From positions 552,241 to 616,240 of the forward strand of contig KE159628.1 of NCBI GenBank assembly GCA_000403335.2: a stretch of 64,000 nucleotides of DNA, read 5' to 3'. The position numbers and the translations under genes are program-made. The stretch is from Lachnospiraceae bacterium MD335. Lineage in GTDB: Bacteria; Bacillota; Clostridia; Lachnospirales; Lachnospiraceae. This document shows positions 19,304 through 33,985 of this stretch, in pieces (position 1 is the stretch's first letter; each line of letters starts with the position of its first letter). The notes under the pieces were generated by a model. It saw nothing but the letters and a program-made list of their open reading frames with translations, did no database searches and was not told the origin of the DNA.

Positions 19304-20878
19304 CTAACTTTTTACCGTTAGCTGGCTTCCCTGTTTCATAAAATTAAAGTGTATCTCCACTGTTGTATTGCGTTTTCCCTCTGCCATATCCTCATGGACA
19401 ACAATCTCTTTGATGAGCAGATGCAGCATCTCCCTGTCAAGTTCCCTGATGTCGGCATACTGCCTTATCAGTGACAGCCACTTTGAATTGTCCTCCTGCT
19501 CCTTTGCCGCCCCGTTAAGACGCTCACGCATCGTATCCGCCTTTTTCTGCAAGGTTTCCTGTTCGGTCTGTGCTTTCTCCATCATGCGGGTAAAATTCGT
19601 TTCGTTAATCCTGCCCGCTACCCAGTCCTCATAGAGTTTGGAAATCAGTGTATCCAGTTCGGAAAGTCGGCACTCACTCTCGGAAAGTTTTTCTTTTATG
19701 CGCCTGCTTTCTTCCTCACTGTCGCACTGGCAGCTTTTCCGCAGTTCCTCCATGACTTTCGTTTCATCCGCAAGGGCGAGTGCCGCACAGGAGCGTATCT
19801 GCTCCAAAACAATCTGATACAGCGTGTCAAGCTCCAACCGGTGCTGGCTGCAATGCGCCACACCGTAACGGTTATACTTGGCACAGGTCAGTATCCTTGT
19901 TTTTGCCTTCGCATTTGCCACACGCTGGTTCATGGTGCTGCCGCATTCCCCACATTTGACAAACCCTGCAAATATCCCATAGTTGCCCCATGCGTCCGGT
20001 CTTTTGCGCATCTTCACTTTTTCCTGCACAAGATTGTAGGTATCCATATCCACAAGCGGCTCATGCACGTTCTCCACCTGAATCCATTCCTCCGGCTTTT
20101 TATCCCCAATCCAGCCGACCTTGAAACGGTAATCTGCCTTCTGTGACGCTATCGTTCCAATATAGACGGGATTGGCGAGTATCTGCTTGATTGTGGAGAA
20201 ATCCCACATATAAATGCCCTTTTCACCGTATTCCTTTTCCCATTTGGTCACATGGTTGCGCAAGCCTTTTTTCCTGTTCCACCAGCAGGGGGCAGGGATT
20301 TTCTCATCCTCCAGCCTGCGCCTGATCCAGTTCGTTCCATGCCCTTCAGCCGCCCAGCCAAATATCTTCTGCACAATCCAAGCGGTGTCTTTGTCCGGTA
20401 TCAGGAAGTTTTTGTCCTCCGGTGACTTCATGTAGCCGAATGGTGCAATACATCCAGTAAACTTGCCCTTTTTCGCCTTGATGACGTAAGAAGAATGTAC
20501 CTTTTTCCCGATGTCCTTTGAATAAATCTCGTTGAAAACGCTGCGGAATGCGATAAGGTCATCATCTTTCCCCGTATCCACGCCGTCTGTCACGCCTATG
20601 TAGCGGATATGATGTTTTGGAAAAAATTCATCCCTCAACTGTCCCGAATGTGTGCTGTTCCGGGTAAGCCTTGACATATCCTTAGTTACCACAATGTCAA
20701 TCTTGCCCTGTTTGCAGTCGGCTAACATTCTCTGGAAGTCCGGTCTGTCCATGTATAAGCCGGAATACCCGTCATCAGCGTACACGCCTGCAACGGTATA
20801 CCCATGTTCCTGACACCACGTTTCCAGCATATCACGCTGGTTGTGTATGCTTGCGCTTTCCCCGTCAAGATTATCGTC
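19304..20878 (-). pseudogene. Resident large serine recombinase, 3' part (split by inner element)
   Basis: About 524 residues continue from DNLDGESASIHNQRDMLETW: the resolvase domain (VTKDMSRLTRN), recombinase domain, zinc ribbon (CGECGSTMNQR) and C-terminal coiled coil. The frame can be extended to 20917 but then reads SALHQNDNSKDDN, which lacks the Tyr-x-Arg-x-Ser catalytic motif and has no ribosome binding site. The missing start lies at 32980-32901. Joining 32980-32901 to 20876-19304 gives 1653 nt, exactly 551 codons including stop, and restores IYCRLSKDDNLDGES. As it stands, this part should be catalytically dead. Confidence 0.88.
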
Positions 20879-20897
20879 TTTGGAGTTGTCATTTTGG
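20877..20897. other. attL of inner element
   Basis: Core TC at 20877-20878, then 10 bp, then arm TCATTTTGG at 20889-20897. To the left lies the resident recombinase coding sequence. Confidence 0.85.
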
Positions 20898-20967
20898 TGG
20901 AGAGCAGAAAACCGCATAGAATCAGCAGAAAAGCGTAACTACACCTTTTATCAATACCCCCACATAA

Positions 20968-21279
20968 CACTCCTATCTTTCCGAGGAACAGCAGTACACG
21001 CTTTTAGAAGCGATGGGTTACAACGATGCCACGCCCTCTCTTGCACAGGCTATCAAGATGAAGAAGTTCATGCAGGAGGGAAAGCTCACGGATGGGGTTA
21101 TCCAGAGTATCATGCAGGAGGAAAAGCCGAACCAGAAAGAGAAGCCCGCCTTTAAGGACGAGCGGATAACCAAACTCATACCGAAATCCATCCCCAGAGG
21201 GCAGGAAACGGATTTTGTCGTAAAGGCGTTGGAGTTCTACAACCGCCATCTGCAAAGGCAGCGGGGGCAGGAAAGATAA
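20968..21279 (+). pseudogene. ParB-like partition protein, C-terminal fragment
   Basis: The frame opens after a stop at 20965 with HSYLSEEQQYTLLEAMGYND and continues to SIPRGQETDFVVKALEFYNRH. This matches what I know as the C-terminal region of ParB/Spo0J-like proteins in Firmicute conjugative elements (a TPSLAQAIKMK helix followed by IMQEEKPNQKEK). The DNA-binding N-terminal part is missing, so a deletion ends here, about 70 bp inside the element. ATG at 21013 is internal, and no ribosome binding site is seen. Confidence 0.65.
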
Positions 21280-21301
21280 CCGCACACTTGGGGAGAAGTC
21301 C

Positions 21302-21309
21302 GCCCTTTG
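21302..21309. repeat. Target-site duplication, left copy
   Basis: GCCCTTTG directly before the left inverted repeat; an identical copy lies at 23313-23320. Confidence 0.9.
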
Positions 21310-23312
21310 GGTTCTTTCTGAACTTTGGGTATAGGCAACAAAAATTATAGGTTGAAATCACATCTGATTTCAGCCTAAATTTTTGCCTATATCAGTTTAG
21401 ATAATTCAAATCCTTTCATCTTGGGCATAAAAGCAAGAAAACATTTTTTTGAAAGGTTGACTAATTTCGCTCTGCCATATACAATACGTTTGATGAGTTT
21501 GAATTTGTTGTTGTTTCCTTCAACAAATCCTGAACTTACTTCTAAAGATATCGCGTTCTTGACCGGGGCGATATCTTTTTTTATACATTCGCAAAACCCT
21601 TTGAGAGAGGAATCTGTATATTTTTCTAAAAAGTCATCTATTTTAGATGGTTCTTTTTCCATCAGTGCAGAATGAAATGTTTGGAATACATCCTCTGTCC
21701 ATCTGACTGCGGGATAATGCTCCTTTATCAAGTTTATATGTTCTTCTACGGTTTTATTTCTTTTTGACTTAGGATTTTTTGTGAGTATGTACTTTAATAT
21801 CTCATCCCTTTTTATTACAGTAACATCGTCCGGATAACAGTCCTCCAGCATTTTCATGGAATGTATCTTTTTTCTGCCCGGAAAATTATTCTGACTTATA
21901 CATGACAGATAAAACCATATGGTGGTTGAGGGATCTTTGATGCCTGTATGCCTCAGATAAAAATAGATGGTATCGTCAGCATGCCCGTCACGCATCATCT
22001 TATAAATGATATTTACATAGGCATTCCCCCTCCGCCCGGCTGAATGTTTTGATTTGCGCGGCCTGTCCATTCCCTGTATTTTTTCTGCCGGCATTTGGAT
22101 ATACCTTCGGGCAGTCGGTCTGCTTATTTTATATTTGCTGCAGATGAGTGCAATGTCTTTTTCCGGCATTTCATTCCACTGGCTTTGTACTTCCTGTATC
22201 ATCTTTTGTTTTTTTCCTGTTTTCTGCCTGCCGTTTTTTCTCGGCACTGTTGTAGTTATTTGCCGAATCGTCGTAATCAACCGGATTTCCATATGCATCT
22301 GTTGGCGGCGTATTGTCATAGTTTAACTGCTGTATGACAGATTCATCCGCTTTCTTTTCCCTTGAAATTTTCTTTGGAGGGGTATCAAGCACCTGTCCGC
22401 CCCTGATAAAGATTTCCGGTGGCAGCTCATTTTTAAAAATATTCTTCAGGTGTTCCATCAGATTCTGCAGCAGATGGAAACGGTCGGCAACCTGCACGCA
22501 TTCCGGCAGGACTTCGCTGACCGCCTTCGCGTATGAACTGGCGCGGTCTCTTGCAACCACTTTGATCTTTTTGTGCTCTTTGAGCCATTCCTTTAATGTC
22601 GTGCCATCCCTTCCACCCAAAAGCGCAATCATGTGGTGGTCTTTCAGATCATAAACTGCAGTTGCATAGGTCTGTCCTTTTCTGGTTGCAACATCATCGA
22701 TGCCAACTGCCTCAACATCCGGATCATCTTCAAACTTTATCCTGTTGTACAGGCGCTGTATGGTATCATTACTTACAGTAACGCCCAGGAGCTTTAACAC
22801 GCTGCTTGCGCCTTCGTTACTCATGAACATGGCCATTCCAAGTATCAGGGTATTGAGGGCATCCGTTCTTACCTGTGATGTTCGCGCAAAAGAAAGCGGC
22901 TCTGTAAACACTTTTGTCCCGCATTCAGGATTATCACACTCATATTTATAAACATTGATATGAAGGCAGGTGGGTTTGCAGCGGATCGGAATATCCTGGA
23001 TCTTCCGCATATAGGTTGCGTGAAGATGCCGGCTTTCTTCCCCGCATTGCGGACAGGCACAGCTATGTTTTCTTGATTTTATAAATATATCTAAAGAATC
23101 CGTTTCTGAATAATCATAAACATAATGATCCTTGTCTAGAAAAAAAGAATAGTCTGTAATTTCTTTATATTTCATATGGCGGTTCTCCTTACAGTATTTG
23201 GTGATACTATTGTATCATTTGTACCCAAAAATAAGAATAATATAGGTAATAAAAAAACAGATCTTTGACCTGTTCTTTTATTACCTATCATACCCAAAGT
23301 TCAGAAAGAACC
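21310..23312. mobile_element. ISL3-family insertion sequence
   Basis: A 2003-bp element with 23-bp perfect terminal inverted repeats (GGTTCTTTCTGAACTTTGGGTAT in parts: GGTTCTTTCTG-AACTTTGGGTAT) at 21310-21332 and, inverted, at 23290-23312. It is flanked by an 8-bp direct repeat, GCCCTTTG, at 21302-21309 and 23313-23320, the target-duplication length known for ISL3. One transposase gene fills it on the minus strand. Confidence 0.95.
21387..23175 (-). pseudogene. ISL3-family transposase, split by a frameshift at an A7 run
   Basis: The first part (23175-22171, 334 residues) starts MKYKEITDYSFFLDKDH and has a zinc-finger-like CPQCGEES motif and the DDE aspartates in VGIDDVATRKG and VARDRASSYAK. 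The second part (open to 21387) supplies the HTH-like segment and the catalytic Glu in SGFVEGNNNKFKLIKRI. The frames meet at GGAAAAAAACAAAAG near 22200-22215: skipping one A joins them into about 590 residues. This could be a mutation that disables the IS, or slippage on the A-run could make some full-length product. Confidence 0.85.
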
Positions 23313-23473
23313 GCCCTTTGGGGGATAGCCATTTTTTTCGGCTTCCCCCTCTCCACACCTCTCCCCCTAGATACTGCCAGTAACTATCCGAGAAAAGAAC
23401 AATTAAAGGCTGTCCAGATGGGCAGCTTTTTTTGACAGCAACTATCAACATGAGAACGAACAGGAGGTAATGA
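23313..23473. other. Short intergenic region
   Basis: Starts with the right copy of the IS target duplication (23313-23320). The rest is C/T-rich leader with GGAGG at about 23462 before the adhesin ATG. No clear promoter. Confidence 0.4.
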
Positions 23474-24238
23474 ATGAAGATTCGTAAATTATTTCAAAGA
23501 GCTGCGGCGTTAGCGTTGGCTGCGGTCACGGCATTGTCCGCCGTCCCTGCCACGACAGCGTTTGCGGCGGGCGACATCGGCACGATTTCCTTTACCCACA
23601 CCTACGACGGCGCAGGGAACGCAATCAGATATAATTCCAGTGCGAACATCGGCGGTCATACCGCAGGCGGCACGGGCGAATACAAATACCGCATGTATGT
23701 GGACGGGGAAACGGCGTTCTGCCTTCAGCCGGGCGTACCCTTAAAAACGGGCAATACGCTGGCAAAGGCATCTTCCAACACATGGAACGCCCTCTCCGCA
23801 GACCAGAAAAAGGCGGTGGGGCTTGCCTTGCTCTACGGCTATCAGGGCAACAGCGGGAATTTATCTGGAAGCGATGATGAGAAATGGCTTGCCACGCAGA
23901 CCCTTGTGTGGGAGTTCGTCACGGGATGCAGACAGGCAGCAAGCCCGTACAGCCAGACAAGCACGACCGTTTACAGCCTGCATTTTGGCTCGAATTATGC
24001 CAACAGCGGGGCAAGGGCGGCTTACGACCAGATTGTGTCATTCATGACAAGGCACAGCACGATTCCAAGCTTCATGTCGGCGGGCAAAAAGGATATTACA
24101 AAGGAGCTTGCCTATAAGGACGGCAAGTACAGCCTTACGCTGACTGACAGCAACGGCGTATTGTCCGAATATTCCTTTACCAGTTCCGACAGCAATGTAA
24201 AGGTGTCCAAGTCTGGGAATGAGAAAAGTTGGAGGTGA
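23474..24238 (+). pseudogene. Thioester-domain surface adhesin, C-terminally truncated
   Basis: A Sec signal peptide (about residues 1-32, cleavage near TAFAAG) is followed by a thioester domain: FCLQPG holds the reactive Cys-Gln pair, with the partner region WLATQTLVWEFVTG. Such proteins are normally over 1000 residues with Cna-B/SpaA isopeptide repeats and an LPXTG anchor. Here the frame stops at 254 residues with SKSGNEKSWR, six bp before the next gene, so an internal deletion removed the stalk and anchor. A secreted, unanchored thioester domain might still be made. Confidence 0.8.
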
Positions 24239-24244
24239 GGAAGA

Positions 24245-24574
24245 ATGTCTGATGCATTCAGATTTGAAACTTTTGTAGATGTTCATGACAATGTTTTTAA
24301 TGAATATCTCGGCTCTGTCATCGCAAAACTGTCCAGAGAAAACAAGGAATACCGTGCCATAAGAGCCGAGATTGAGGGCTTATATGAAAAATATCCGAAA
24401 GTCTTAGGCGTGTTTGACACGGAATCAGCGGAGGAACTGACCGAGGAAGAATGTGCCGCACTGATTAAAGTGAAGGAGCTTAGGAACAAACTTACGGACA
24501 TGGAGATGCAGTCGGTCTACTTCCGTGGTTGCTATGACAGCGTGGGGTATCTGAAAAAGGCAGGGATTTTATAA
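24245..24574 (+). CDS. Conserved mobile-element protein, function unknown
   Basis: A 109-residue acidic, helical protein starting MSDAFRFETFVDVHDNVFNEY, preceded by GGAGGTGAGG, which overlaps the truncated adhesin's end. It has no recognised catalytic motif. I associate similar small proteins with integrative conjugative elements of Firmicutes but cannot name a function. Confidence 0.6.
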   Translation: MSDAFRFETFVDVHDNVFNEYLGSVIAKLSRENKEYRAIRAEIEGLYEKYPKVLGVFDTESAEELTEEECAALIKVKELRNKLTDMEMQSVYFRGCYDSVGYLKKAGIL

Positions 24575-24740
24575 CGGACTGACCGAGAAAAAGGCGGTGT
24601 TAGCGTGAGTGCTGATGCCGCTTTTTACATAGCCACAGGGTAGAAAATTTTATAGATTGAAGAGAAGTGGAAAAATCAATAAGTGGTATATATTTTGTAA
24701 GAAGTGATAAATTTTAAAATACTATTTTACCAAAAAATAG
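24575..24740. other. Intergenic region; start of AT-rich cassette
   Basis: A weak hairpin with AAAAAGGCGG and CCGCTTTTT arms at about 24590-24628 may terminate the upstream transcript. Beyond about 24640 base composition turns strongly A/T-rich and stays so until about 28820. Confidence 0.4.
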
Positions 24741-24768
24741 TTGAAAAATCAATAAAAAATGTTATAAT
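24741..24768 (+). promoter_or_regulatory. Promoter of the AT-rich cassette
   Basis: TTGAAA at 24741-24746 and TATAAT at 24763-24768 with a 16-bp spacer, 33 bp before the radical SAM start codon. Confidence 0.65.
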
Positions 24769-24800
24769 TTAATAAAATAAGAAAGAAGATTATGTGAGGG

Positions 24801-25949
24801 ATGCATATGGAACAAAAACTTCATTGGCTAAATAATGCGATGGTAAATATAGAAGAATCAAAAAAAAGGATTAATAAAATTGTTAGAGAATATGAAAATA
24901 TAGATAAAAAATTAAAATTGATTTATTTATATGTAACCTTTGGATGTAATCAAAAATGCCAATATTGTTGGATAAACAATAATACATCATCTGGAAACAA
25001 TGAAATGAATCTCGAAATGATTGATACTATTTTGGAAGAGGCGTTACCTCTTGGATTAGAACGTGTTAAAATTACAGGTGGAGAGCCGTTTACTAATAAT
25101 AATTTAATTCGAATTATAAATAGAATACTTTCTTTTGATGTGAGAATAGACATAGAAACTAATGGTACTAGATTAAATGAAGAGTTGTTGTTGGAGATAA
25201 ATGATTTAAATAAAATTTATTTTAAGATTAGCTTAGATTCGGTAAATACATCTGAACATAATAAATTAGCAAATACTGGCAGTGATGTTTTTGCAAAAAC
25301 TATATCCAATATTTACCTTTTAAAAAAATATTCAGTAGATTTTGATATAGTTACTGTAATGAATAAAATAAATAAAAATAGCATGAATGAAACTGTTAAA
25401 TATGTCCAAAAGTTAGGAGCAAATAGTCACCGTATTATTTTAAGTATACAACCAATAGGGCATGGAAAAGAAGCAAAAGAAATTCAATTGGATTTAGATG
25501 AAACTATAGAAATGATTAATAACATTTATAAATTAAAATCTGATTATGAAAATTTAGCAGTTGGAACATTGCATTCAACATTACCACCAGCTTTTATGCC
25601 CTTGGATTCGATTCAATTTAGACCATGTAACTGGGGAGTTAATCTTTGTGGAATAATGCCAAATGGAGATGTTTCAATTTGTGCTCCTGCATTTGATTCT
25701 ATGGAAATTGTTGCAGGAAATATTTTTAATCAGAGTTTGTCAAGCATATGGTATGAATCAGAGATGTTTAAAAGCCTTTCTGAAGTTGAAGAACTGGAAG
25801 GTATTTGCGGACGATGCTCATATGTAAAAATGTGCAGAGGTATGTGCAGGATATTTGCTAAGGCAGAATATGGACGAATAACTTCTCCTTACCCGTTTTG
25901 TCAAAAAATGTATGAGAAAGGCTTATTTCCTACATATGCTATAAAATAG
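24801..25949 (+). CDS. Radical SAM/SPASM-domain enzyme
   Basis: A 382-residue protein (ATG at 24807 is an equally possible start; GTGAGGG precedes both). The radical SAM cluster motif is C49-x3-C53-x2-C56 (CNQKCQYC), followed by the glycine-rich ITGGEPF segment that binds SAM. The C-terminal third holds a SPASM-type region with CNWGVNLCG, SICAP, CGRCSYVKMCRGMC and a final PFC, expected to bind auxiliary Fe-S clusters. SPASM enzymes often modify peptides, but no precursor peptide gene is visible nearby, so the substrate is open. First gene of the cassette; codon use is extremely A/T-rich. A viperin-like role is unlikely because of the SPASM region. Confidence 0.88.
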   Translation: MHMEQKLHWLNNAMVNIEESKKRINKIVREYENIDKKLKLIYLYVTFGCNQKCQYCWINNNTSSGNNEMNLEMIDTILEEALPLGLERVKITGGEPFTNNNLIRIINRILSFDVRIDIETNGTRLNEELLLEINDLNKIYFKISLDSVNTSEHNKLANTGSDVFAKTISNIYLLKKYSVDFDIVTVMNKINKNSMNETVKYVQKLGANSHRIILSIQPIGHGKEAKEIQLDLDETIEMINNIYKLKSDYENLAVGTLHSTLPPAFMPLDSIQFRPCNWGVNLCGIMPNGDVSICAPAFDSMEIVAGNIFNQSLSSIWYESEMFKSLSEVEELEGICGRCSYVKMCRGMCRIFAKAEYGRITSPYPFCQKMYEKGLFPTYAIK

Positions 25950-25972
25950 AAAATAAGATAGGAGATTGTAAA

Positions 25973-26512
25973 ATGGAAAGTTGGGATTTTAATGAAAGTA
26001 ATGCAATGGAGCAATGGGATATATTTGATAAAAATAGGAAAAAATTAAACTATACAAAACCTCGAAAAAGTAATTTGGAAGAAGGAGAATACCATTTAGT
26101 TGTTAGAATTTGGATTGTAGATGATAAAGGAAATATATTATTGTCTAAAAGAAATCCGAGTAAAAGAGGGGGCGGGTTATGGGAATGTACAGGAGGTTCT
26201 GTTTTAAGTGGTGAAACTACGGAGCAAGCTGTTGTACGAGAGGTAAAAGAAGAGTTGGGAATAGAGTTGGATATAGCACAAGGAAATGTTGTAATGAGTG
26301 AGAGAAGGGATGGACATCATGATTTTTATGATATATGGCTATTCCGTAAAAATATTAGATTAGATGAGATTGTATTTGATAAAAATGAAGTTATTGATGT
26401 AAAATGGGTTACTATTGAACAGTATAAAAAAATGTTTGATAATAATGAAGTTATGCCGACTTTGGGTTTTTTTATTGAAATATATGAAAAGTTTATAAGT
26501 TCAATATCTTAG
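25973..26512 (+). CDS. Nudix hydrolase
   Basis: A 179-residue protein starting 23 bp after the radical SAM gene with AGGAG ahead. The Nudix box fits the consensus exactly at residues 75-97 (G75, E81, R89-E90, E93-E94, G96). The N-terminal EQWDIFDKNRKKL and GEYHLVV resemble the isopentenyl-diphosphate-isomerase-like branch of Nudix proteins, though sequence alone does not prove that chemistry. It should cleave or rearrange a diphosphate-linked substrate. Same A/T-rich composition and strand as its neighbours, so part of one operon. Confidence 0.88.
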   Translation: MESWDFNESNAMEQWDIFDKNRKKLNYTKPRKSNLEEGEYHLVVRIWIVDDKGNILLSKRNPSKRGGGLWECTGGSVLSGETTEQAVVREVKEELGIELDIAQGNVVMSERRDGHHDFYDIWLFRKNIRLDEIVFDKNEVIDVKWVTIEQYKKMFDNNEVMPTLGFFIEIYEKFISSIS

Positions 26513-26545
26513 AAATCATGATATATTATTTGAAAGGAAGAGAAA

Positions 26546-28594
26546 GTGAAATCTCGCATTTTACATTTATCCGATATTCATTTGGGGAATGATATAGGAA
26601 TAACGGATTATGAAATAGATGATAAATTAGGTGTTTTTAGAAATAATTTAATTGAAAGCAAGCAGAATTATTTTGACATTCTTTTGGATTATTTATCTAA
26701 TGCTGGAATTACGTATGATTTTGTAGTTATTTCGGGTGATATAGTACATAGAGGGCAATATGACTATAGTTCATACTTTAATACGTGTATCTTAAAATTG
26801 ATTGAATTAAAGAGGTTGCCAAATAGAAATCACATAATTATTGTCCCAGGTAATCATGATATTGTAGAGGGGAATGATAAATGGAAAATCTTTGAGCAAT
26901 ATTTAGATATTCAGTTTGTGAAACCTATAATGAAATTAAATTCCATTTCTCGAAATGAGTATTTACAAAAAGTCAATAATTTATTAAGAAAAAGAAAGCG
27001 TTCAAAGTTTATAAGTAATTTAGATTTTCCATTTATTATTGACAAAAATAAAAAAATTATATTTTATGCATTTAACTCTTGTTCATTGTGTCAAATGAAT
27101 AATGTTATAATAGATGGAAAAAGCGAAAAATTGGATTTGCCACGTATAGATAATCTGGAATTAGATTATTTTATATATACGATGAAGTCTTTAAAAGAAA
27201 TAGATAATGATTATAATGATTATTTAAAAATTGCTGTTTTTCATCATCATATTTCTTCATTTACAGAATTTGAAGAGATTAAATCATTTGAAACATTGAG
27301 TAATGCAGGGATTGTAAAAAAGACACTAATTGAAAATGGATTTAAGTTAGTATTGCATGGTCATAAGCACTATCCCAATATATATTTGGATACAACAGCA
27401 AGCAAAAAAGGAGGATTGACTGTTGTTTCGGGCGGTTCTATATGTGAAATAATAAATAGAAAAGGAGTCAAACAAGGTTTTTTTGACTTATTATATGATA
27501 GTAAAAGTCCTAATGAAATAAATCAAAGATATATAGAATTAATAAATTCAAAAAGAAATTATGATAGAGTTCCATATGAAAAAATAGAATTACCTCAAAA
27601 TAAAAGTTACATTAAAAAAAGCAATAAAATTGATGTGGCTAATATAAATAGATTAATATTAAATGTCTTAGAAAAGAATTTTGTAAAGAATAATAATATA
27701 TGTGGATGGGACAAAAAAATATTAGATAAAAAGACGGTCGGAATTTTAGGTACTGCATTTGGAATAATTTTGATGGAAATGACCGGAGGCAATTCAAAAT
27801 TTTATATTGAAAATAAAGCAAGTATAATAAATTCCTTGCATTATCAGAGAAAAACAGATGGTGGATTTGGTGTTTTATTCCAAAGCGAAAGTTCCATTAT
27901 AGCTACTTGTTGGGTAGCGCAAGCATTCAAAATATCTGAGACATGGGATTATTATTTAAAAACGATAAATGTTTTGTTAGAATTTGAAGAAATAAAATCC
28001 GAAGAAATTATTTCTGAAAGTTATGAAAGTAATACATTTACTATTGCCTTTCTTATGAGAGTATTGTTAGATTATTATATGATATTTCAAAATAATCATG
28101 TTAAAAGTACAATAGATGTATTGTATAAAAGTTTGAAAGAAGGCTATTTAGAGGATTCTCAAGGAATAAGATGGGCAAAAAATTTAAAAAATGACGAAGA
28201 AGAATCAATACCGCACACTTGCCATGCGTGTATTGCATTAATTCAATATCAGGAAATTTTCAAAAGAAATGATGAGGAATTATTTCATATATTAAAATAC
28301 GCAAAAAAATGGTTATTAGACAGACAGGATATGGCTTTTGTTGTTGAACGTATTAGACATAATGGGATGGAAGTGGTTTATGAACATAATACTATAACAT
28401 GGTATATAATTGCACTAATTAAATTGGGGGTTTCTGAATTTGAAGAAAAAGTAATTAAAAATGTTGATTCGATAATGAATAAATTTGATTGGGAAAAAGG
28501 AGTTTGGAAATATAATGATTCATATAACATATGGGAAACATATGATTCATTAATAGCATTGAGAGAGTATATAATATTTTCGGCTAAGTATTAA
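26546..28594 (+). CDS. Metallophosphoesterase fused to terpene-cyclase-like alpha/alpha toroid
   Basis: A 682-residue protein with a GTG start preceded by AAAGGAAG. Residues 1-285 are a calcineurin-like phosphoesterase with all metal motifs: D10-x-H12, GD65, GNHD (N103-H104), H233-H235 and GH273-x-H275. From about 375 to the end the sequence becomes helical with repeats such as YQRKTDGGFG, ATCWVAQAF, HTCHACIAL and ITWYIIALIKLG, like the alpha/alpha barrels of prenyltransferase beta subunits and squalene cyclases (QW-type DGGFG repeats). The acidic DxDD cyclase motif is not seen, so the toroid may bind rather than cyclise. Third gene of the cassette. I know no named protein with this architecture. 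Confidence 0.8.
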   Translation: MKSRILHLSDIHLGNDIGITDYEIDDKLGVFRNNLIESKQNYFDILLDYLSNAGITYDFVVISGDIVHRGQYDYSSYFNTCILKLIELKRLPNRNHIIIVPGNHDIVEGNDKWKIFEQYLDIQFVKPIMKLNSISRNEYLQKVNNLLRKRKRSKFISNLDFPFIIDKNKKIIFYAFNSCSLCQMNNVIIDGKSEKLDLPRIDNLELDYFIYTMKSLKEIDNDYNDYLKIAVFHHHISSFTEFEEIKSFETLSNAGIVKKTLIENGFKLVLHGHKHYPNIYLDTTASKKGGLTVVSGGSICEIINRKGVKQGFFDLLYDSKSPNEINQRYIELINSKRNYDRVPYEKIELPQNKSYIKKSNKIDVANINRLILNVLEKNFVKNNNICGWDKKILDKKTVGILGTAFGIILMEMTGGNSKFYIENKASIINSLHYQRKTDGGFGVLFQSESSIIATCWVAQAFKISETWDYYLKTINVLLEFEEIKSEEIISESYESNTFTIAFLMRVLLDYYMIFQNNHVKSTIDVLYKSLKEGYLEDSQGIRWAKNLKNDEEESIPHTCHACIALIQYQEIFKRNDEELFHILKYAKKWLLDRQDMAFVVERIRHNGMEVVYEHNTITWYIIALIKLGVSEFEEKVIKNVDSIMNKFDWEKGVWKYNDSYNIWETYDSLIALREYIIFSAKY

Positions 28595-28827
28595 AATTGA
28601 AAAATCAAATTTGCTTTTTACTAATGCGAGATTCGGTTGAAGCAAACTCCCTAATGGATATAGATTTATATAAAGAGATGCATTTGACAGTTATGATAAA
28701 ATTAAAGTCATTGGAGAAATTTTTGAAGAAACATTTGATATTAAGTCAAAGAATATAAGGAACTATATACAATTTTAGTAGAAGTGTATTGATTTAGTTA
28801 ATATATTGATAGATTTATTTATTACAT
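28595..28827. other. AT-rich intergenic debris
   Basis: A short frame reading RDAFDSYDKIKVIGEIFEE and SKNIRNYIQF (about 28675-28780) looks like the tail of a lost protein; upstream stops interrupt it. No intact gene. Confidence 0.4.
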
Positions 28828-28870
28828 AGCCGAGAGGTTTTCATTAGCGAAAATCCCTCGGCTTATTTTA
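28828..28870 (+). terminator. Hairpin terminator at end of AT-rich cassette
   Basis: AGCCGAGAGGTTTTC at 28828-28842 pairs with GAAAATCCCTCGGCT at 28849-28863 apart from two positions, followed by T-rich sequence. It separates the cargo operon from the DUF3848 operon. Confidence 0.65.
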
Positions 28871-28889
28871 TTTTCAAGGAGGTGTGTGA

Positions 28890-29237
28890 TTGAATTACCA
28901 AGAGTACAGAGAGTCCCTTAACCAAAAACTGGCTGAAAAAGTACAGCGTGAGCTTGCCGATTTCCGTGAGGATATTCTAAGCAAGAGTCCACAGGAAGTT
29001 TACAATGCTGCATATCAAATCATCATAAAGAGTGATATTGCAGAGTGCTTTTCCGAAGCGGATTATTCCCCGCAGGCGGCAAAAGCCCTTATGAAATCCC
29101 CGAATCTTTTGCAGGATGTCTATGAAGAATGGATTGGACGGGAGGATTCCCACATGGATGAGCTGCACCAGACTATCGCAGATTTTAAATCCTATATGGT
29201 TAAGACGGAAAAGATTTTGTCTGGGAAAGAGAGGTGA
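28890..29237 (+). CDS. DUF3848 family protein
   Basis: A 115-residue protein with a TTG start (TTGAATTACCAAGAG) seven bp after AAGGAGG. It matches the DUF3848 family of conjugative-element accessory proteins in Clostridia: a helical N-terminus and a central SDIAECF...ALMKSPNLLQDVYEEW segment. Function unknown. It lies 10 bp before the DUF3991/Toprim gene and is co-transcribed with it. Confidence 0.75.
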   Translation: MNYQEYRESLNQKLAEKVQRELADFREDILSKSPQEVYNAAYQIIIKSDIAECFSEADYSPQAAKALMKSPNLLQDVYEEWIGREDSHMDELHQTIADFKSYMVKTEKILSGKER

Positions 29238-29247
29238 GCGTGCTTGG

Positions 29248-30237
29248 ATGAGAAGTAACAGACCTTATGTGCAGATAGCCCCCGACGTGCTTGAGCAGGC
29301 AAGGCAGATAGACCTACTCTCCTATCTTCGGGCTTACGAGCCGAGCAACCTTGTCAAAGTCAAAGGCACAACGAACGTCTACTGTACCGCCGAACATGAC
29401 AGCCTAAAGATTTCCAACGGCAAATGGTACTGGTGGTCGAGGGGCTTTGGCGGCTACTCTGCCCTTGACTATCTGATGAAAGTCAAGGAATACGGTTTTG
29501 TGGAAGCCGTGGAAATCCTTACGGGGCAGACGATGGCGGACTGGAAGCCGCCGCCCCCTGCCGTAAAAAAAGACGAGCCAAAGGTGCTGCTCCTGCCGCC
29601 GAAAAATAAGGACTGCGGAAAAGTGACGGAGTATCTTTTCGGTCGTGGCATTGACTATCAGCTTATCCAAGAGTGCATTGCCGAGGGGATTATTTTCGAG
29701 AGTGCCGACTACCACAACGCCGTTTTTATCGGGAAAGATGAAAGCGGGACGCCAAAATACGCCGCCTGCCGTGGCACAATGGGGAACTTTAAGCGGGACG
29801 CATCAGGCAGCGACAAGCGGTATTCGTTTCGGCTTCTGGCAAAAGAGCCGACCGATGCCGTGCATTTATTTGAAGCTGCCATTGATTTATTATCCTACGC
29901 CACCTATTTAAAATGCGAGGGCAGGGATTATAAGGCAGAGAATCTTCTCTCCCTGTCGGGCGTATATCAGCCGAAGAAAGAGCTGAAAGAAAGCAAAATC
30001 CCCGTTGCCCTCACGACTTTTTTGAAAGCAAACCCGCAAATCAAGACCATATTTCTGCATCTGGATAAGGACAGGGCAGGTCGTTTATGTACCGCCGCTC
30101 TGAAAGAATTGTTGCAGAAAGACTACCGAATCGTTGATGAACCGCCGCCAGCCGGCAAGGACTTCAACGATTTTTTAATGTCCTATCTGGGGATTGCAAG
30201 GCAGAAACCGAGCCGTGAAAGGGGGGATGCCCGCTGA
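29248..30237 (+). CDS. DUF3991/Toprim-domain protein (mobile-element primase-like)
   Basis: A 329-residue protein. The start at 29248 (MRSNRPYVQIAPDVLEQAR) follows GAGGTGAG; the frame is open further upstream but overlaps DUF3848. Residues 10-100 hold the zinc-finger-like/DUF3991 region (YCTAEHDSLKISNGKWYWWSR in parts), followed by GRGIDYQLIQECI and a C-terminal Toprim fold with FLHLDKDRAGR as acidic centre. Such proteins are thought to act in DNA processing or replication of conjugative elements, as truncated primases without a helicase part. Confidence 0.8.
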   Translation: MRSNRPYVQIAPDVLEQARQIDLLSYLRAYEPSNLVKVKGTTNVYCTAEHDSLKISNGKWYWWSRGFGGYSALDYLMKVKEYGFVEAVEILTGQTMADWKPPPPAVKKDEPKVLLLPPKNKDCGKVTEYLFGRGIDYQLIQECIAEGIIFESADYHNAVFIGKDESGTPKYAACRGTMGNFKRDASGSDKRYSFRLLAKEPTDAVHLFEAAIDLLSYATYLKCEGRDYKAENLLSLSGVYQPKKELKESKIPVALTTFLKANPQIKTIFLHLDKDRAGRLCTAALKELLQKDYRIVDEPPPAGKDFNDFLMSYLGIARQKPSRERGDAR

Positions 30238-30311
30238 CTGCGTGAAGATTTTTCTGTTGGAAACAACCGTAACTATCACAAAATTTCAGACCAAAAGGGA
30301 GGAAAGGCTGA

Positions 30312-30524
30312 TTGAAGAATTATGAAGTGACCCTTGTCGCCCACTATGCAAAGACCGTTTCCATCCATGCCGACAGCCCCGAACAGGCAGCGGAGAAGCT
30401 AAAGACCGTCCTGTTTGACACCGACCTTGTGAAGTTTTCCGACGGGGATTTTGTCTGCGGCGAAGCCGAGATTAACGACCCTATATGCCGCTTTCTCTGC
30501 AAAACATATTGCTGCAATTTCTGA
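30312..30524 (+). CDS. DpnD/PcfM-like protein, C-terminus altered
   Basis: A TTG start after GGAGGAAAGG gives a 70-residue protein, MKNYEVTLVAHYAKTVSIHA. Residues 1-56 match what I know as the DpnD/PcfM family (SPEQAAEKLKTVLFDTDLVKF, FVCGEAEI). The last 14 residues, RFLCKTYCCNF, are atypical and overlap the next frame, suggesting a small deletion or shift at about 30480. Confidence 0.6.
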   Translation: MKNYEVTLVAHYAKTVSIHADSPEQAAEKLKTVLFDTDLVKFSDGDFVCGEAEINDPICRFLCKTYCCNF

Positions 30525-30912
30525 TAGAAGCAAGGTTGACGTAAAACCGAAGCTGCCCACCCACTACTTTATCGACGCAGAGTGCGGCTTGCAGCTCCCT
30601 TCCATCGTGCTTCTCGAGCAGCTCCGCACGGTCAGCAAGCAGCGGCTTGAGGGGTATATCGGGCGGCTGGACAAAAAACATATCCGTGGTGTAAACCATG
30701 CGCTGGCGGTCAGCATCGGTCTTATCTCCCCCGTCCCAAACAGGCTTCAGCTCTGCTTATGCGGCACTTGTGCGGACAATTTTTACAGCACAGGTGCTTA
30801 CATCCTGCGAAGGCTTGACAAAGGGCAGACTGAGAAAGACGTATGCACATACTGCAACCAGCGGATGGGCTTTGATTATGAAGTCATACCGAAAACAGAC
30901 GGGCGGGAATGA
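30451..30912 (+). CDS. Cysteine-rich mobile-element protein; start uncertain
   Basis: The frame is open from ATG 30451, but that codon lies inside the DpnD-like gene with no ribosome binding site. Recognisable sequence begins about 30545 with PTHYFIDAECGLQLPSIVL. Near the C-terminus CLCGTCADNF and CTYCNQRMGFDYE form two Cys-x2-Cys pairs, a probable zinc-binding site. Its start may have been lost in a deletion that joined it to the DpnD-like gene. Function unknown; found in conjugative elements. Confidence 0.5.
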   Translation: MSAAKPRLTTLYAAFSAKHIAAISDRSKVDVKPKLPTHYFIDAECGLQLPSIVLLEQLRTVSKQRLEGYIGRLDKKHIRGVNHALAVSIGLISPVPNRLQLCLCGTCADNFYSTGAYILRRLDKGQTEKDVCTYCNQRMGFDYEVIPKTDGRE

Positions 30913-30938
30913 CCCGCAGGAAAGATGGGAGGAATGGC

Positions 30939-31139
30939 ATGGAAACAATTCCAGAAAGGGGACACGTCACTCACAAAGGGGCTTGCAGCGGTGCAGGCTC
31001 TTTTCCTCATCAGAGGGAAACCTTTGACGCAAAAGACAACATCCGTGTTGTCAGCATCTTCAACGGGGCGAGGACGGCAAGCGAGGTCATACACCAAGCG
31101 GCTGTCAAAAAAATCCTCTATGAGAACCCGTATGCATGA
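30939..31139 (+). CDS. Small recombinase-accessory protein (excisionase-like candidate)
   Basis: A 66-residue protein, METIPERGHVTHKGACSG, preceded by GGGAGG. Its C-terminal half (IRVVSIFNGARTASEVIHQA) aligns with the same part of the small protein at 32967-33242 (ITVKTVFDGKQSGQQAFMKL), which precedes the resident recombinase. A short gene of this type upstream of two independent large serine recombinases suggests a directionality or accessory role, which is inference. Confidence 0.55.
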   Translation: METIPERGHVTHKGACSGAGSFPHQRETFDAKDNIRVVSIFNGARTASEVIHQAAVKKILYENPYA

Positions 31140-31240
31140 CGGGAACAGCAGGCACACATTTGACCGTGCCGTTACAGCCTTATATACTGTAAGCGTAGGT
31201 TACACTTTCCTGCTGTTTCCCAAAAAGGAGGCATTTATTT

Positions 31241-32869
31241 ATGAGAGAACAGCAGAATTATACCGCAGGGATTTATTGCAGGCTGTCTTCCGAGGATTCT
31301 GCCGAGCATGAGTCCATGAGCATCGGAAACCAGAAAGCGATGCTCAGCGACTATGTGAAAAGGCAGGGATGGGAAGTCGGGGACATTTATATCGACGACG
31401 GGTACTCTGGGACGAATTTTGAAAGACCAGATTTCAAGCGGATGATAGGCGACATTGAAAACGGCAAAATCAACATGGTTGTCGTAAAGGACTTATCAAG
31501 ACTTGGGCGGAACTATATCATGTGCGGACAGTACACCGAGATTTACTTCCCCGAAAAGGGGGTGCGTTTCATTGCGGTGAATGACAATGTTGACACCATC
31601 AATAACACGGGCAGCATGGACATCACACCCTTCAAGCACATCCTGAACGACATGTACGCAAAGGACATCTCCACAAAGATAAAATCCTCACTGCACATGA
31701 AAGCGATGCGTGGCGAGTATCTGGGTGCGCTCGACCCTTACGGGTATGTCCGTGACCCGAAAGACAAGCACAAGCTGCTTGTCAATGAGGAAACAGCCCC
31801 CATCGTGAAACGCATCTTTGAGATGTGTGCGGGCGGCATGGGTTCAAGGAGCATAGCGACCACGCTTAACAATGAGGGCGTACTCTCCCCCGCAGAGTAC
31901 AACCGATTTAAAAACCACGACCCAGAGAAAGACGGGGCTTTTGTCCGTAAACGCTACTGGTGTCAGACATATATCCGAACCATGCTCCAAAATGAGATGT
32001 TTATCGGGAGCATGGTGCAGGGCAGGCATTACACACCGTCCTACCGCACAAAAAAAAGGGTAAAAAATGACAGGGAAGATTGGATTGTCGTCAAAGGTAT
32101 GCACGAGCCGATTATCTCTGAGGAACTGTTTGAGCAGGCTCAAAAGGCACTCCACTCCCGCAAAATCCAGCCCCGTAAGGACAGCCCACACCATGTAGAC
32201 CCCGATGTTTTCTCTGGGCTGTTCCGCTGCGAAGCCTGCGGGACTGCGATGCGGAAACACCGCACACATAACGGGAAATATATCTATTATGTATGCGGAC
32301 GCCACCACCAGCAGGGAAAATTCGCCTGCTCAAGCCATTACATCAACTGCGATGTGATTACCCGCCTTGTCCGTGAGGACATAAAAAGAAACGCCGTCCT
32401 ATTCGCAGAGGATACGGAACGAGCTGTCAAAGAACTGACAGAAAAGAAATGCTCTGATGACCAGAAAAAACTGTCGCAGATGAAATCCGAGCTGACCGCT
32501 TCAAGGAATCAGCTTGCAGGGCTTGACGCAAAGCTCCGACGGGCGTATGAGGACAATCTTTCTGGCAAGCTGCCAGACCACATTTTCACAATGCTTATCG
32601 GGAATTACGATGAAGAAAAAGAAACATTGCAGCGAACCATCCGTGAACTGGAAAAACGCATTGACGCTTCCAATGCCGCAAGGTCTGACGTGGAGCGTTT
32701 CTCGAAGCTAATCCAGAAGTACACCAGTTTTGAGGAACTCGACAGCTTCATGCTCCATGAGCTGATTGAGAAAATCACAATCTACGAAACGCCCAACATG
32801 GGACGTTACCGCAAAGGGAAAGAGAAAATCGTTACGATTTATTACAAGTTTGTGGGGGCGTTACAGTAA
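31241..32869 (+). CDS. Large serine recombinase of inner element
   Basis: A 542-residue intact recombinase of the TndX/Tn4451 type with AAAAAGGAGG ahead of the ATG. Order: resolvase domain with nucleophile S16 in GIYCRLSSED and VVVKDLSRLGRN; recombinase domain; zinc ribbon (CEACGTAMRKH, then later Cys and His); and a C-terminal coiled coil. Its stop codon lies 32 bp from the attR core, as expected for an integrase at the element's end. It should catalyse integration and excision at a GA/TC core. Confidence 0.93.
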   Translation: MREQQNYTAGIYCRLSSEDSAEHESMSIGNQKAMLSDYVKRQGWEVGDIYIDDGYSGTNFERPDFKRMIGDIENGKINMVVVKDLSRLGRNYIMCGQYTEIYFPEKGVRFIAVNDNVDTINNTGSMDITPFKHILNDMYAKDISTKIKSSLHMKAMRGEYLGALDPYGYVRDPKDKHKLLVNEETAPIVKRIFEMCAGGMGSRSIATTLNNEGVLSPAEYNRFKNHDPEKDGAFVRKRYWCQTYIRTMLQNEMFIGSMVQGRHYTPSYRTKKRVKNDREDWIVVKGMHEPIISEELFEQAQKALHSRKIQPRKDSPHHVDPDVFSGLFRCEACGTAMRKHRTHNGKYIYYVCGRHHQQGKFACSSHYINCDVITRLVREDIKRNAVLFAEDTERAVKELTEKKCSDDQKKLSQMKSELTASRNQLAGLDAKLRRAYEDNLSGKLPDHIFTMLIGNYDEEKETLQRTIRELEKRIDASNAARSDVERFSKLIQKYTSFEELDSFMLHELIEKITIYETPNMGRYRKGKEKIVTIYYKFVGALQ

Positions 32870-32881
32870 ACGCCCTTTATA

Positions 32882-32902
32882 CCAAAATGAACACTCGTCA
32901 TC
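32882..32902. other. attR of inner element
   Basis: Arm CCAAAATGA at 32882-32890, 10 bp, then core TC at 32901-32902. The arm is the exact inverse of the attL arm at the same distance from the core. To the right lies the 5' part of the resident recombinase. Confidence 0.85.
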
Positions 32903-32980
32903 CTTTGAGAGCCTGCAATATATGGCAACCCGTAAATTGCTGTGAAGCTGCTGTAATGCTGCGAAATTAGAATCCATCAT
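32901..32980 (-). pseudogene. Resident large serine recombinase, 5' part
   Basis: Starts MMDSNFAALQQLHSNLRV at 32980 after GGAGG, and reaches the catalytic motif IYCRLSKD (nucleophile S25) before the element junction inside codon 27. Past the junction it reads a few foreign codons (ECSFWYKG) to a stop. Continuation at 20876-19304. Confidence 0.88.
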
Positions 32981-33242
32981 GCTGTCCTCCGTTTTCCGCA
33001 AAACCAACAGTTGTACCGCCAACATTTGCTTCACTGTCTTTAGTATAGTCTGTATATTGTGTTTTATCAATACTATGTGCTGATTTATCAATATAAGTAT
33101 TTTGTATATCTACCCCACTGATACGGTATTGTCTTTGTATCAGCTTCATAAATGCCTGCTGTCCGCTCTGTTTTCCGTCAAAGACTGTTTTTACTGTAAT
33201 GCCTGCTTTTGTATCGGTGCAATTACCTGTCACATTATCCAT
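32967..33242 (-). CDS. Small recombinase-accessory protein of resident element
   Basis: A 91-residue protein, best start MDNVTGNCTDTKAGITVKT at 33242 with AAAGGATT ahead (an in-frame ATG at 33260 is possible). Its end overlaps the recombinase start by 14 bp, implying translational coupling. The ITVKTVFDGKQSGQQAF core is shared with the small protein before the inner recombinase. Confidence 0.55.
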   Translation of the reverse strand: MDNVTGNCTDTKAGITVKTVFDGKQSGQQAFMKLIQRQYRISGVDIQNTYIDKSAHSIDKTQYTDYTKDSEANVGGTTVGFAENGGQHDGF

Positions 33243-33423
33243 AATCTTAATCCTTTCCATTTTCTGTAATTGCCCTGACGCTGTACAAGGATATGGACTT
33301 ATTGACAATGCCATATCCACAAGTTTCTGAAAAATGCCACAAAAAAATAGGGAAACAAATCTGAATCATCAGTTATTCCCTGCTTTATGGCTACAATATA
33401 AAATTTTTATTCTGTATACCTCA
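33243..33423. other. Intergenic region
   Basis: No gene or clear hairpin seen. The promoter of the accessory/recombinase pair should lie here, but no good -35/-10 pair is evident. Confidence 0.3.
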
Positions 33424-33852
33424 CTATACATAGTGGTTTTGCCTACAACAACATATTTCAGATAATATTTCCATAAATCTAATCACAAACGCAGGCGAGT
33501 ATACAACCTTTTCATGTTCGTAATCATATCTTATTACAGCAAAATTCAATTTTACTTTTTCTAAATGAGTTTCAAAATCATCATCCATTTTTTCTTTAAT
33601 TAGAATTTTTATACTATCATCACACTTATCATATAGCTCTTTTAAATCATGTCCTGCCACTAACTGCTTCTTAGTTTTTGTCTGAATACCATCCTTTTCA
33701 AAATTAACTAAATATTTTAAGTACAATTCACACGCTAAACATGCATTTAATTCTGTTGGTATCAATTTATTTGACTGCTTTAGTATATCCGCCGCATCTC
33801 TAAATTGATTTGCCCTATCCAAAATTTCATAATCGTTAATTTCTATATCCAT
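33424..33852 (-). CDS. HEPN-domain-like protein
   Basis: A 142-residue helical protein starting MDIEINDYEILDRANQF at 33852. The pattern ACELYLKYL followed by HDLKELYDK and FAVIRYDYEHEK is typical of small HEPN-like proteins. The classical RNase Rx4-6H motif is not clearly present, so a nuclease role is not shown. It stands alone between the recombinase unit and the Rpn-like gene; a toxin-antitoxin or defence role is possible but unproven. Confidence 0.55.
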   Translation of the reverse strand: MDIEINDYEILDRANQFRDAADILKQSNKLIPTELNACLACELYLKYLVNFEKDGIQTKTKKQLVAGHDLKELYDKCDDSIKILIKEKMDDDFETHLEKVKLNFAVIRYDYEHEKVVYSPAFVIRFMEILSEICCCRQNHYV

Positions 33853-33985
33853 CAATATATTCTCCCATTCTTATATTATGCATAAATAATTTGGTTAATG
33901 GTCTAAAATAAGGCAATGATATATGCAATGTATAACTTAATCAAAATCAAATTACTGCTTTTTTACATATTTTAACACTATCACT

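What the first reader, a model, noticed from the sequence alone, without database searches (positions are those of the whole stretch)
24741..28594. Unrecognised AT-rich operon: radical SAM/SPASM + Nudix + phosphoesterase-toroid
Three genes share a promoter, strand, short spacing and a strongly A/T-rich composition unlike the flanking element backbone, and sit as cargo between backbone genes. All catalytic motifs are intact. The combination suggests a small-molecule or modified-nucleotide/peptide pathway, for example making and trimming a diphosphate-linked product, or a defence system; both are inference. I know no described system with these three parts.
Basis: partly seen in the sequence, partly recalled or inferred. 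Interest (0 to 1): 0.85.

Follow-up and report, generated by a model that had tools for sequence, protein, structure and literature searches.

The report
Swappable cassette with antiphage-type phosphoesterase
Three intact, AT-rich genes sit in a slot of a mobile-type DNA element whose relatives carry other genes in the same slot; one of the three resembles bacterial antivirus enzymes, so the set may be an undescribed defence cassette, which is untested.

Summary
Three intact + strand genes lie in one AT-rich block: radical SAM/SPASM, Nudix, and a calcineurin-like phosphoesterase with an orphan helical C-terminus. The block lies between two copies of TTACATAGCC. In 10 of 15 regions fetched from family genomes, the same left backbone gene (DUF6664) is followed by a right-hand backbone gene with other, GC-poorer cargo between. 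Backbone homology stops at the repeat. This is a cargo-swapping slot; 2 of 8 slots scanned hold defence-type proteins (TIR-SIR2; HD-CE with HSP90-like ATPase).

The phosphoesterase scores 99.9 bits on an anti-phage phosphoesterase model; eight host phosphoesterases score at most 18.9 or are not listed. A weak fold model matches mostly alpha/alpha toroids. The radical SAM protein groups with a partly plasmid-borne clade sitting near phosphoribosyltransferases.

I found no second copy of the trio, so 'conserved three-part system' is not shown. Most likely it is a rare defence cassette: phosphoesterase effector, toroid sensor or regulator, and two enzymes of nucleotide or peptide chemistry. That is inference, about 0.45. 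Interest 0.5.

The parts
24625..24634 (+). Left copy of the slot repeat TTACATAGCC, after the hairpin-like stretch that follows the DUF6664 gene
   Evidence: Exact copy of 28822-28831; backbone homology to 7 of 7 relatives ends at 24631-24652
24741..24768 (+). Promoter-like site TTGAAA-16-TATAAT with TG before the -10
   Evidence: 11 of 12 consensus bases, best of 46 sites; 33 expected by chance
24801..25949 (+). Radical SAM/SPASM protein, 382 aa, grouped with a phosphoribosyltransferase-linked clade
   Evidence: Pfam 2.4e-25 and 1.8e-8; cysteines present; group of 7 at 97/98
25973..26512 (+). Nudix hydrolase, 179 aa; the host chromosome encodes three relatives (46, 38 and 34% identity)
   Evidence: Pfam 1.3e-18; Nudix box complete; paralogues
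26546..28594 (+). Two-domain protein, 682 aa: calcineurin-like phosphoesterase (about residues 1-300) with an all-helical C-terminal domain
   Evidence: Pfam Metallophos 1.8e-15 over 4-277; NF053862 99.9 bits over 2-299
27629..28591 (+). C-terminal domain, residues 362-682; perhaps an alpha/alpha toroid; no convincing sequence relative found
   Evidence: Model pLDDT 49.9, pTM 0.53; Foldseek best E 0.036, mostly toroids by title; no relatives; three weak PHROG matches
28597..28781 (+). Short remnant-like stretch between the last gene and the right repeat; content of the slot, origin unknown
   Evidence: ORF list; no match beyond the window's own copies and chance-length hits in 179 held loci; E 2-4 hits for one piece
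28822..28831 (+). Right copy of TTACATAGCC, leading into a conserved hairpin-like stretch (GCCGAGAGG...CCCTCGGC)
   Evidence: hairpin seen by eye, the scanner does not list it
24245..24574 (+). Backbone gene left of the slot (DUF6664)
   Evidence: Pfam 9.7e-59; tblastn match in 10 of 15 regions fetched
28890..29237 (+). Backbone gene right of the slot (DUF3848), present in only some relatives
   Evidence: Pfam 7e-37; tblastn match in 2 of 15 regions fetched
29248..30237 (+). Backbone gene right of the slot, primase-like by eye (name recalled, no family scan run)
   Evidence: tblastn match, some partial, in 12 of 15 regions fetched

Best explanation
The block is a cargo cassette in a swap slot of a conjugative-type element, probably transcribed as one operon, and most likely a phage-defence (or element-conflict) cassette. 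The 682-aa protein is the effector: its phosphoesterase domain would cut a nucleotide, second messenger or nucleic acid when its C-terminal toroid senses a trigger. The radical SAM/SPASM enzyme and the Nudix enzyme would make and destroy a small modified nucleotide, or modify the effector, and so set or limit the response.

Shown: three intact genes, the slot, different cargo in relatives, kinship of the phosphoesterase domain to the anti-phage model. Weakly supported: the toroid fold. Inferred: defence, the substrate, the roles of radical SAM and Nudix, the single transcript, the way cargo is exchanged.
For: Slot: left homology ends at the repeat in 7 of 7 loci; right homology begins there in the 2 loci that keep DUF3848, and in the other 6 of 8 the repeat and hairpin stand directly before the primase-like gene. 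All 11 slot contents are GC-poorer than their loci; among these and the window, 1 of 66 pairs (L174-L176) is related by tblastx at 1e-5. Occupants include TIR (5.8e-17) with SIR2 (5.3e-16), and HD-CE (2.4e-27) with an HSP90-like ATPase (4.6e-9). The phosphoesterase has 99.9 bits on NF053862, an anti-phage phosphoesterase model; of eight host phosphoesterases three are listed at 18.9, 12.4 and 10.6 bits and five are not listed, while three kin in conflict-type settings (WD40/Ras-like fusion next to NACHT-annotated genes; beside an ORC-CDC6-like ATPase; HSP90-like fusion) score 76.7, 73.4 and 56.7. Passages of PMC7159879 and PMC8195603 name calcineurin-type phosphoesterases among variable effectors of counter-invader systems. 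The radical SAM clade lies near phosphoribosyltransferase and dehydrogenase genes in 7 of 7 loci compared and PRPP synthetase in 5 of 7.
Against: No second copy of the trio was found, so the three genes may not work together. The phosphoesterase is far under the curated cut-off of NF053862 (99.9 of 420). Six of the 8 slots scanned show no defence-type family above cut-off; some slots hold kinase-like proteins or, by eye, an acetyltransferase (L176) or transposase parts (L174). PADLOC gives no named-system hit that fits: a weak viperin-type match for the radical SAM protein (65.1 bits), candidate family PDC-S07 for the Nudix protein (58.1 bits, perhaps just the Nudix domain), PDC-S10 at 13.9 bits for the phosphoesterase. 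The Nudix subfamily is common in the host. The toroid rests on a poor single-sequence model, and a self-repeat test was not significant. The element block looks truncated.
Confidence: 0.45

Rival explanations
1. A small-molecule pathway: the radical SAM/SPASM enzyme and Nudix build a nucleotide- or PRPP-derived metabolite and the phosphoesterase removes a phosphate or diester; the cassette serves metabolism or competition, not defence.
For: The radical SAM protein groups (97/98) with a clade near phosphoribosyltransferase (7 of 7 loci), dehydrogenase (7 of 7) and PRPP synthetase (5 of 7). In tubercidin biosynthesis a radical SAM enzyme, a phosphoribosyltransferase and a tailoring Nudix enzyme work in one pathway (PMC6112128, passages); this precedent raised my odds from 0.22 to 0.24.
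Against: None of those partner genes is in the window cassette, and the tubercidin radical SAM enzyme is a short protein (139 aa in its Table 1). The phosphoesterase carries a large extra domain and groups with anti-phage-type effectors. No transporter ORF lies in the block.
Confidence: 0.24
2. Chance assembly: the slot collects AT-rich genes one by one; the phosphoesterase protein is a stand-alone defence or conflict gene and the radical SAM and Nudix genes are unrelated passengers.
For: No co-occurrence found; other slots hold one to several ORFs; a remnant-like stretch follows the last gene; the Nudix family is common.
Against: Same strand, gaps of 23 and 33 bp, no terminator-like site on their strand, and matching GC and third-position GC in all three genes.
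Confidence: 0.22
3. Peptide maturation: the radical SAM/SPASM enzyme modifies a peptide or the 682-aa protein itself, whose toroid binds the peptide, as lanthionine cyclases or peptide maturases do.
For: SPASM enzymes mostly modify peptides (recalled); NCBIfam neighbours include several peptide maturases; the Foldseek list includes a lanthipeptide synthetase (8car, E 0.72).
Against: No convincing precursor ORF in or beside the cassette; no lanthionine-cyclase or RiPP family match to the C-terminal domain.
Confidence: 0.08

Closest known systems
NF053862 (DS9_1) anti-phage phosphoesterase, NCBIfam
   Same: Phosphoesterase domain aligns over profile 193-473 of 486, 99.9 bits
   Different: Far below the curated cut-off of 420 bits; no counterpart of profile 1-192; a helical C-terminal domain of no known family instead
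Calcineurin-type phosphoesterase effectors of NTP-dependent conflict systems (PMC7159879, PMC8195603; passages seen)
   Same: Phosphoesterase as a variable effector joined to other domains or genes in counter-invader systems
   Different: No NTPase, GTPase, EAD or TRADD-N domain was found here; the partner genes are radical SAM and Nudix
SynChlorMet cassette radical SAM/SPASM protein ScmF (TIGR04251)
   Same: Best NCBIfam match of the radical SAM protein, 166.2 bits over residues 38-378
   Different: Cut-off is 400 bits; no second radical SAM gene in the block; the tree groups it with another clade
Phosphoribosyltransferase-linked radical SAM clusters of Rhizobium, cyanobacteria and Bacteroidales (found here; no name known to me)
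   Same: Nearest clade of the radical SAM protein, about 31-34% identity, some on plasmids
   Different: Those clusters have phosphoribosyltransferase, dehydrogenase and often PRPP synthetase; no relative of the window's Nudix or phosphoesterase was seen in them
Tubercidin biosynthesis (PMC6112128; passages seen)
   Same: A radical SAM enzyme and a Nudix hydrolase act in one nucleoside pathway
   Different: That cluster also has GTP cyclohydrolase, CPH4 synthase, GMP reductase, phosphoribosyltransferase, UbiD decarboxylase, kinase and transporter genes, none of them in the window block; kinship of the enzymes themselves was not tested

Membership tests
NF053862 DS9_1 anti-phage phosphoesterase | Whole-protein score of at least 420 bits | tested here: not met
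   99.9 bits
Anti-phage-type phosphoesterase domain group (wider than DS9_1) | Scores clearly above the host's other phosphoesterases on the anti-phage model | tested here: met
   99.9 bits against at most 18.9 in 8 host phosphoesterases, of 10 others found in the host; 2 not scanned
Phage-defence system | Protects a host against phage | not testable with these tools
   Needs an experiment
Phage-defence system | Encoded in a site that also holds defence genes | tested here: inconclusive
   2 of 8 slots scanned hold clear defence-type domains; 3 more of the 11 slots were not scanned
Phage-defence system | Gene set recurs across genomes | tested here: not met
   Trio not found again; metagenomes could not be searched
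Radical SAM/SPASM enzyme | CX3CX2C, GGEP and SPASM cysteines | tested here: met
   Pfam
ScmF of the SynChlorMet cassette | At least 400 bits and an adjacent ScmE partner | tested here: not met
   166.2 bits; no second radical SAM gene in the block
Viperin (pVip) | Radical SAM protein without a SPASM domain (recalled) | tested here: not met
   SPASM present; 65.1 bits on pVip in PADLOC against 166.2 on ScmF in NCBIfam
Nudix hydrolase | Complete Nudix box | tested here: met
   Residue 75 onwards
Class II terpene cyclase | DxDD motif | tested here: not met
   No DxDD in the protein
Alpha/alpha toroid fold (C-terminal domain) | Ring of paired helices | tested here: inconclusive
   Poor model; about 40 of the 50 Foldseek rows listed (of 412 matches) are toroids by my reading of titles, best E 0.036; viral library nothing significant; self-repeat test not significant, 53 of 100 shuffles reach it
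Phosphoribosyltransferase-linked radical SAM cluster | Phosphoribosyltransferase and dehydrogenase genes beside the radical SAM gene | tested here: not met
   Only Nudix and phosphoesterase genes share the block

The most novel reading that the evidence does not exclude
A defence system in which a radical SAM/SPASM enzyme makes a modified nucleotide, a Nudix enzyme keeps it in check, and a toroid-phosphoesterase senses it and acts: radical SAM nucleotide chemistry used in immunity outside the viperins (which, as recalled, make antiviral nucleotides), carried in a swap slot of a mobile element.
Probability: 0.1. Interest if true: 0.88.

Novelty: new variant of a known kind. Interest (0 to 1): 0.5.

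Why it matters
If the cassette defends its host, it joins an anti-phage-type phosphoesterase to an unassigned helical domain and to radical SAM and Nudix enzymes, a combination that searches did not bring up in print. The slot is the surer part: a short repeat marks where related elements carry different GC-poor cargo, which gives a place to look for further undescribed defence genes.

Tried and rejected
Viperin: weak PADLOC score, and a SPASM domain is present. ScmF membership: below cut-off and outside the ScmE/F-like branches. Terpene cyclase activity: no DxDD. Known RNA element: no Rfam match at gathering score in 20001-34000. Peptide precursor: none convincing. Full-length structure model: pLDDT 37, not used. 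Viral structure library: nothing significant. Internal-repeat evidence for a toroid: not significant. Plasmid and phage relatives of the C-terminal domain: none in plasmids, one phage hit at E 5. DNA relatives of 23801-29400 in plasmids: none. Viral contigs: no relative of the radical SAM or 682-aa protein by exact peptides; with an alignment, 26 partial radical SAM matches at 3e-7 or weaker. Source of the DS names in NCBIfam: not found.
Full report
Observation. The three genes are real, intact and on one strand: 24801-25949, 25973-26512 and 26546-28594, with gaps of 23 and 33 bp, GC of 0.26-0.31 against 0.43-0.54 in five neighbouring ORFs, and a 682-aa ORF where 500 resamplings give at most 181 aa. 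A good promoter-like site lies at 24741-24768, in a region where such sites are common by chance.

The slot. TTACATAGCC occurs at 24625-24634 and 28822-28831. A 10-bp repeat alone could be chance; its weight comes from relatives. The pattern TTACATAGCCGAGAGG with up to one mismatch hit 30 places in 23 of 299 family genomes, the window's own included; the reversed-pattern control hit 15 places in 14 genomes, so many one-mismatch hits are chance; 13 of the 30 places are exact. I fetched 15 regions covering 18 of the 30 places, chosen for the pattern, so not a random sample; four of them were already known from the DUF6664 search. Of the 12 places not fetched, one is the window's own and one (L156) looks like the slot by its flank. 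tblastn finds DUF6664 in 10 of 15 regions, the primase-like gene in 12 of 15 (some partial), DUF3848 in 2 of 15, and no relative of the three cargo proteins in any. Ten regions have DUF6664 with a right-hand backbone gene (nine primase-like, one DUF3848). An eleventh, L171, has only the right side because its contig begins inside the slot. Slot contents are 0.9-3.5 kb and GC-poorer than their locus in 11 of 11 (L171 incomplete). Among these 11 and the window, 1 of 66 pairs (L174-L176) is related by tblastx at 1e-5.

The boundaries. In eight loci compared by blastn (L165, L166, L167, L170, L171, L173, L178, L179), backbone DNA identity is 73-93%. Left homology (7 loci) ends at window 24631-24652. 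Right homology begins at 28811-28819 in the two with DUF3848, and at 29231-29262 in the six without it, where the repeat and hairpin stand directly before the primase-like gene. Good repeat copies on both sides were seen in 3 of 15 regions (L165, L173, L175); in others the left copy is diverged. No empty slot was seen. How cargo is exchanged is not shown.

What else sits there. Ten cargo proteins were scanned with each of PADLOC, Pfam and NCBIfam (slightly different tens), touching 8 of 11 slots; L170, L174 and L176 were not scanned. L165 holds a TIR-SIR2 protein and one with a sub-cut-off HEPN_Swt1 match. L171 holds an HD-CE/HSP90-like ATPase protein. L166 has a kinase-like match above cut-off and L178 only weak ones. 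L167, L173, L175 and L179 gave nothing above a cut-off. So the slot admits defence genes but is not shown to be mainly a defence slot.

The phosphoesterase protein. Its N-terminal domain matches NF053862, an anti-phage phosphoesterase model, at 99.9 bits against a cut-off of 420. As control I took the host's other Metallophos matches (10) and scanned eight: three list the model, at 18.9, 12.4 and 10.6 bits, five do not. Kin found by similarity score 76.7 (Nostoc plasmid, a large protein with WD40 and Ras-like domains, neighbours annotated NACHT), 73.4 (Pseudoalteromonas plasmid, next to an ORC-CDC6-like protein) and 56.7 (fused to an HSP90-like ATPase). This is kinship, not proof of function. 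The C-terminal domain has no relative in 398 phylum genomes besides the own one, in plasmids at E 10 or in Pfam at E 10; one phage hit has E 5; three weak PHROG matches (best 6.9e-5, unknown function) were not followed. A single-sequence model (pLDDT 49.9, pTM 0.53) has 412 Foldseek matches at E 10, none at 0.001; of the 50 listed, about 40 are alpha/alpha toroids by my reading of the titles (complement thioester domains, GH76, lyases, an epimerase, a lanthipeptide synthetase), many of them repeats of a few proteins.

The radical SAM protein. Its nearest relatives are 31-34% identical over nearly full length. A tree of 18 proteins groups it at 97/98 with those of Rhizobium, two cyanobacteria and two Bacteroidales; its place as sister to those six has 93/93; the root is for drawing only. 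In the 7 loci of that clade that I compared (six in the tree, L023 left out), a phosphoribosyltransferase and a medium-chain dehydrogenase are near in 7 of 7 and PRPP synthetase in 5 of 7, by annotation, Pfam or BLAST grouping. These come from three lineages, so they are not seven independent observations. One search kept 80 of 496 relatives; I compared 10 of those 80 with four loci from other searches, and none of the 14 showed a relative of the window's Nudix or phosphoesterase among its ORFs.

Rarity. In 397 family genomes the 682-aa protein is found only in the window's own; three others give phosphoesterase-domain matches only. The radical SAM protein: own genome only of 299 family genomes at 1e-30, and four others of 398 phylum genomes at 1e-35, at 29-33% identity. 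The species-wide scan with the 682-aa protein used exact peptides and would miss distant relatives. Metagenomes could not be searched.

Mechanism. The best-supported account is a defence cassette with the phosphoesterase as effector and the helical domain, perhaps a toroid, as sensor or regulator. The radical SAM and Nudix roles are guesses shaped by the nucleotide-linked kin of the radical SAM protein and by the tubercidin precedent. I put the slot near certain, the phosphoesterase kinship at about 0.8, defence at about 0.45, and any given role of the two small enzymes at 0.2 or less.

Literature. I saw passages only of PMC7159879, PMC8195603, PMC10250203, PMC10853773, PMC12839542 and PMC6112128; the rest were search listings. 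The first two name calcineurin-type phosphoesterases as effectors in conflict systems; PMC7159879 also mentions, for separate systems, a radical SAM domain as a likely peptide modifier and Nudix as a domain that may act on ADP-ribose or NAD. PMC10250203 has radical SAM and Nudix genes only as flanks of two different Pseudomonas defence hotspots. PMC6112128 shows radical SAM, phosphoribosyltransferase and Nudix enzymes in tubercidin biosynthesis. Searches that tried to find the trio: 0 papers; 1; 8 with at least 3 of 4 terms; 27, 15 listed.

Noticed in passing
L030:11152-11775 and L005:9309-9782: In the phosphoribosyltransferase-linked radical SAM clusters a small unannotated gene carries a shared glycine/arginine-rich stretch, partly repeated in L030; it may be the radical SAM enzyme's substrate.
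   Followed up: no
L005, L006, L020, L022, L023, L029, L030: A cluster of phosphoribosyltransferase, radical SAM/SPASM, dehydrogenase and often PRPP synthetase, in Rhizobium, cyanobacteria and Bacteroidales, on plasmids in some; I know no name for it.
   Followed up: partly
L019:6866-10387 (- strand): A 1174-aa protein joining an anti-phage-type phosphoesterase to an HSP90-like ATPase.
   Followed up: partly
window 24219-30484: Backbone homology to the eight relatives compared lies only within this block; on both sides the window differs, with transposase- and serine-recombinase-like ORFs (by eye) at 22171-23175, 19304-20917 and 31241-32869, so the element looks truncated or rearranged.
   Followed up: no
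window 28597-28781: A short stretch after the last gene reads like the decayed end of another gene, split over two frames (by eye); origin not found.
   Followed up: partly
L181 (G000:C1:464286-464702): A chromosomal Nudix relative (46% identity) has one stop codon inside the match.
   Followed up: no
L164 and L156: The slot repeat also occurs once in a viral contig (L164) and in one more genome whose flank looks like the slot (L156).
   Followed up: no
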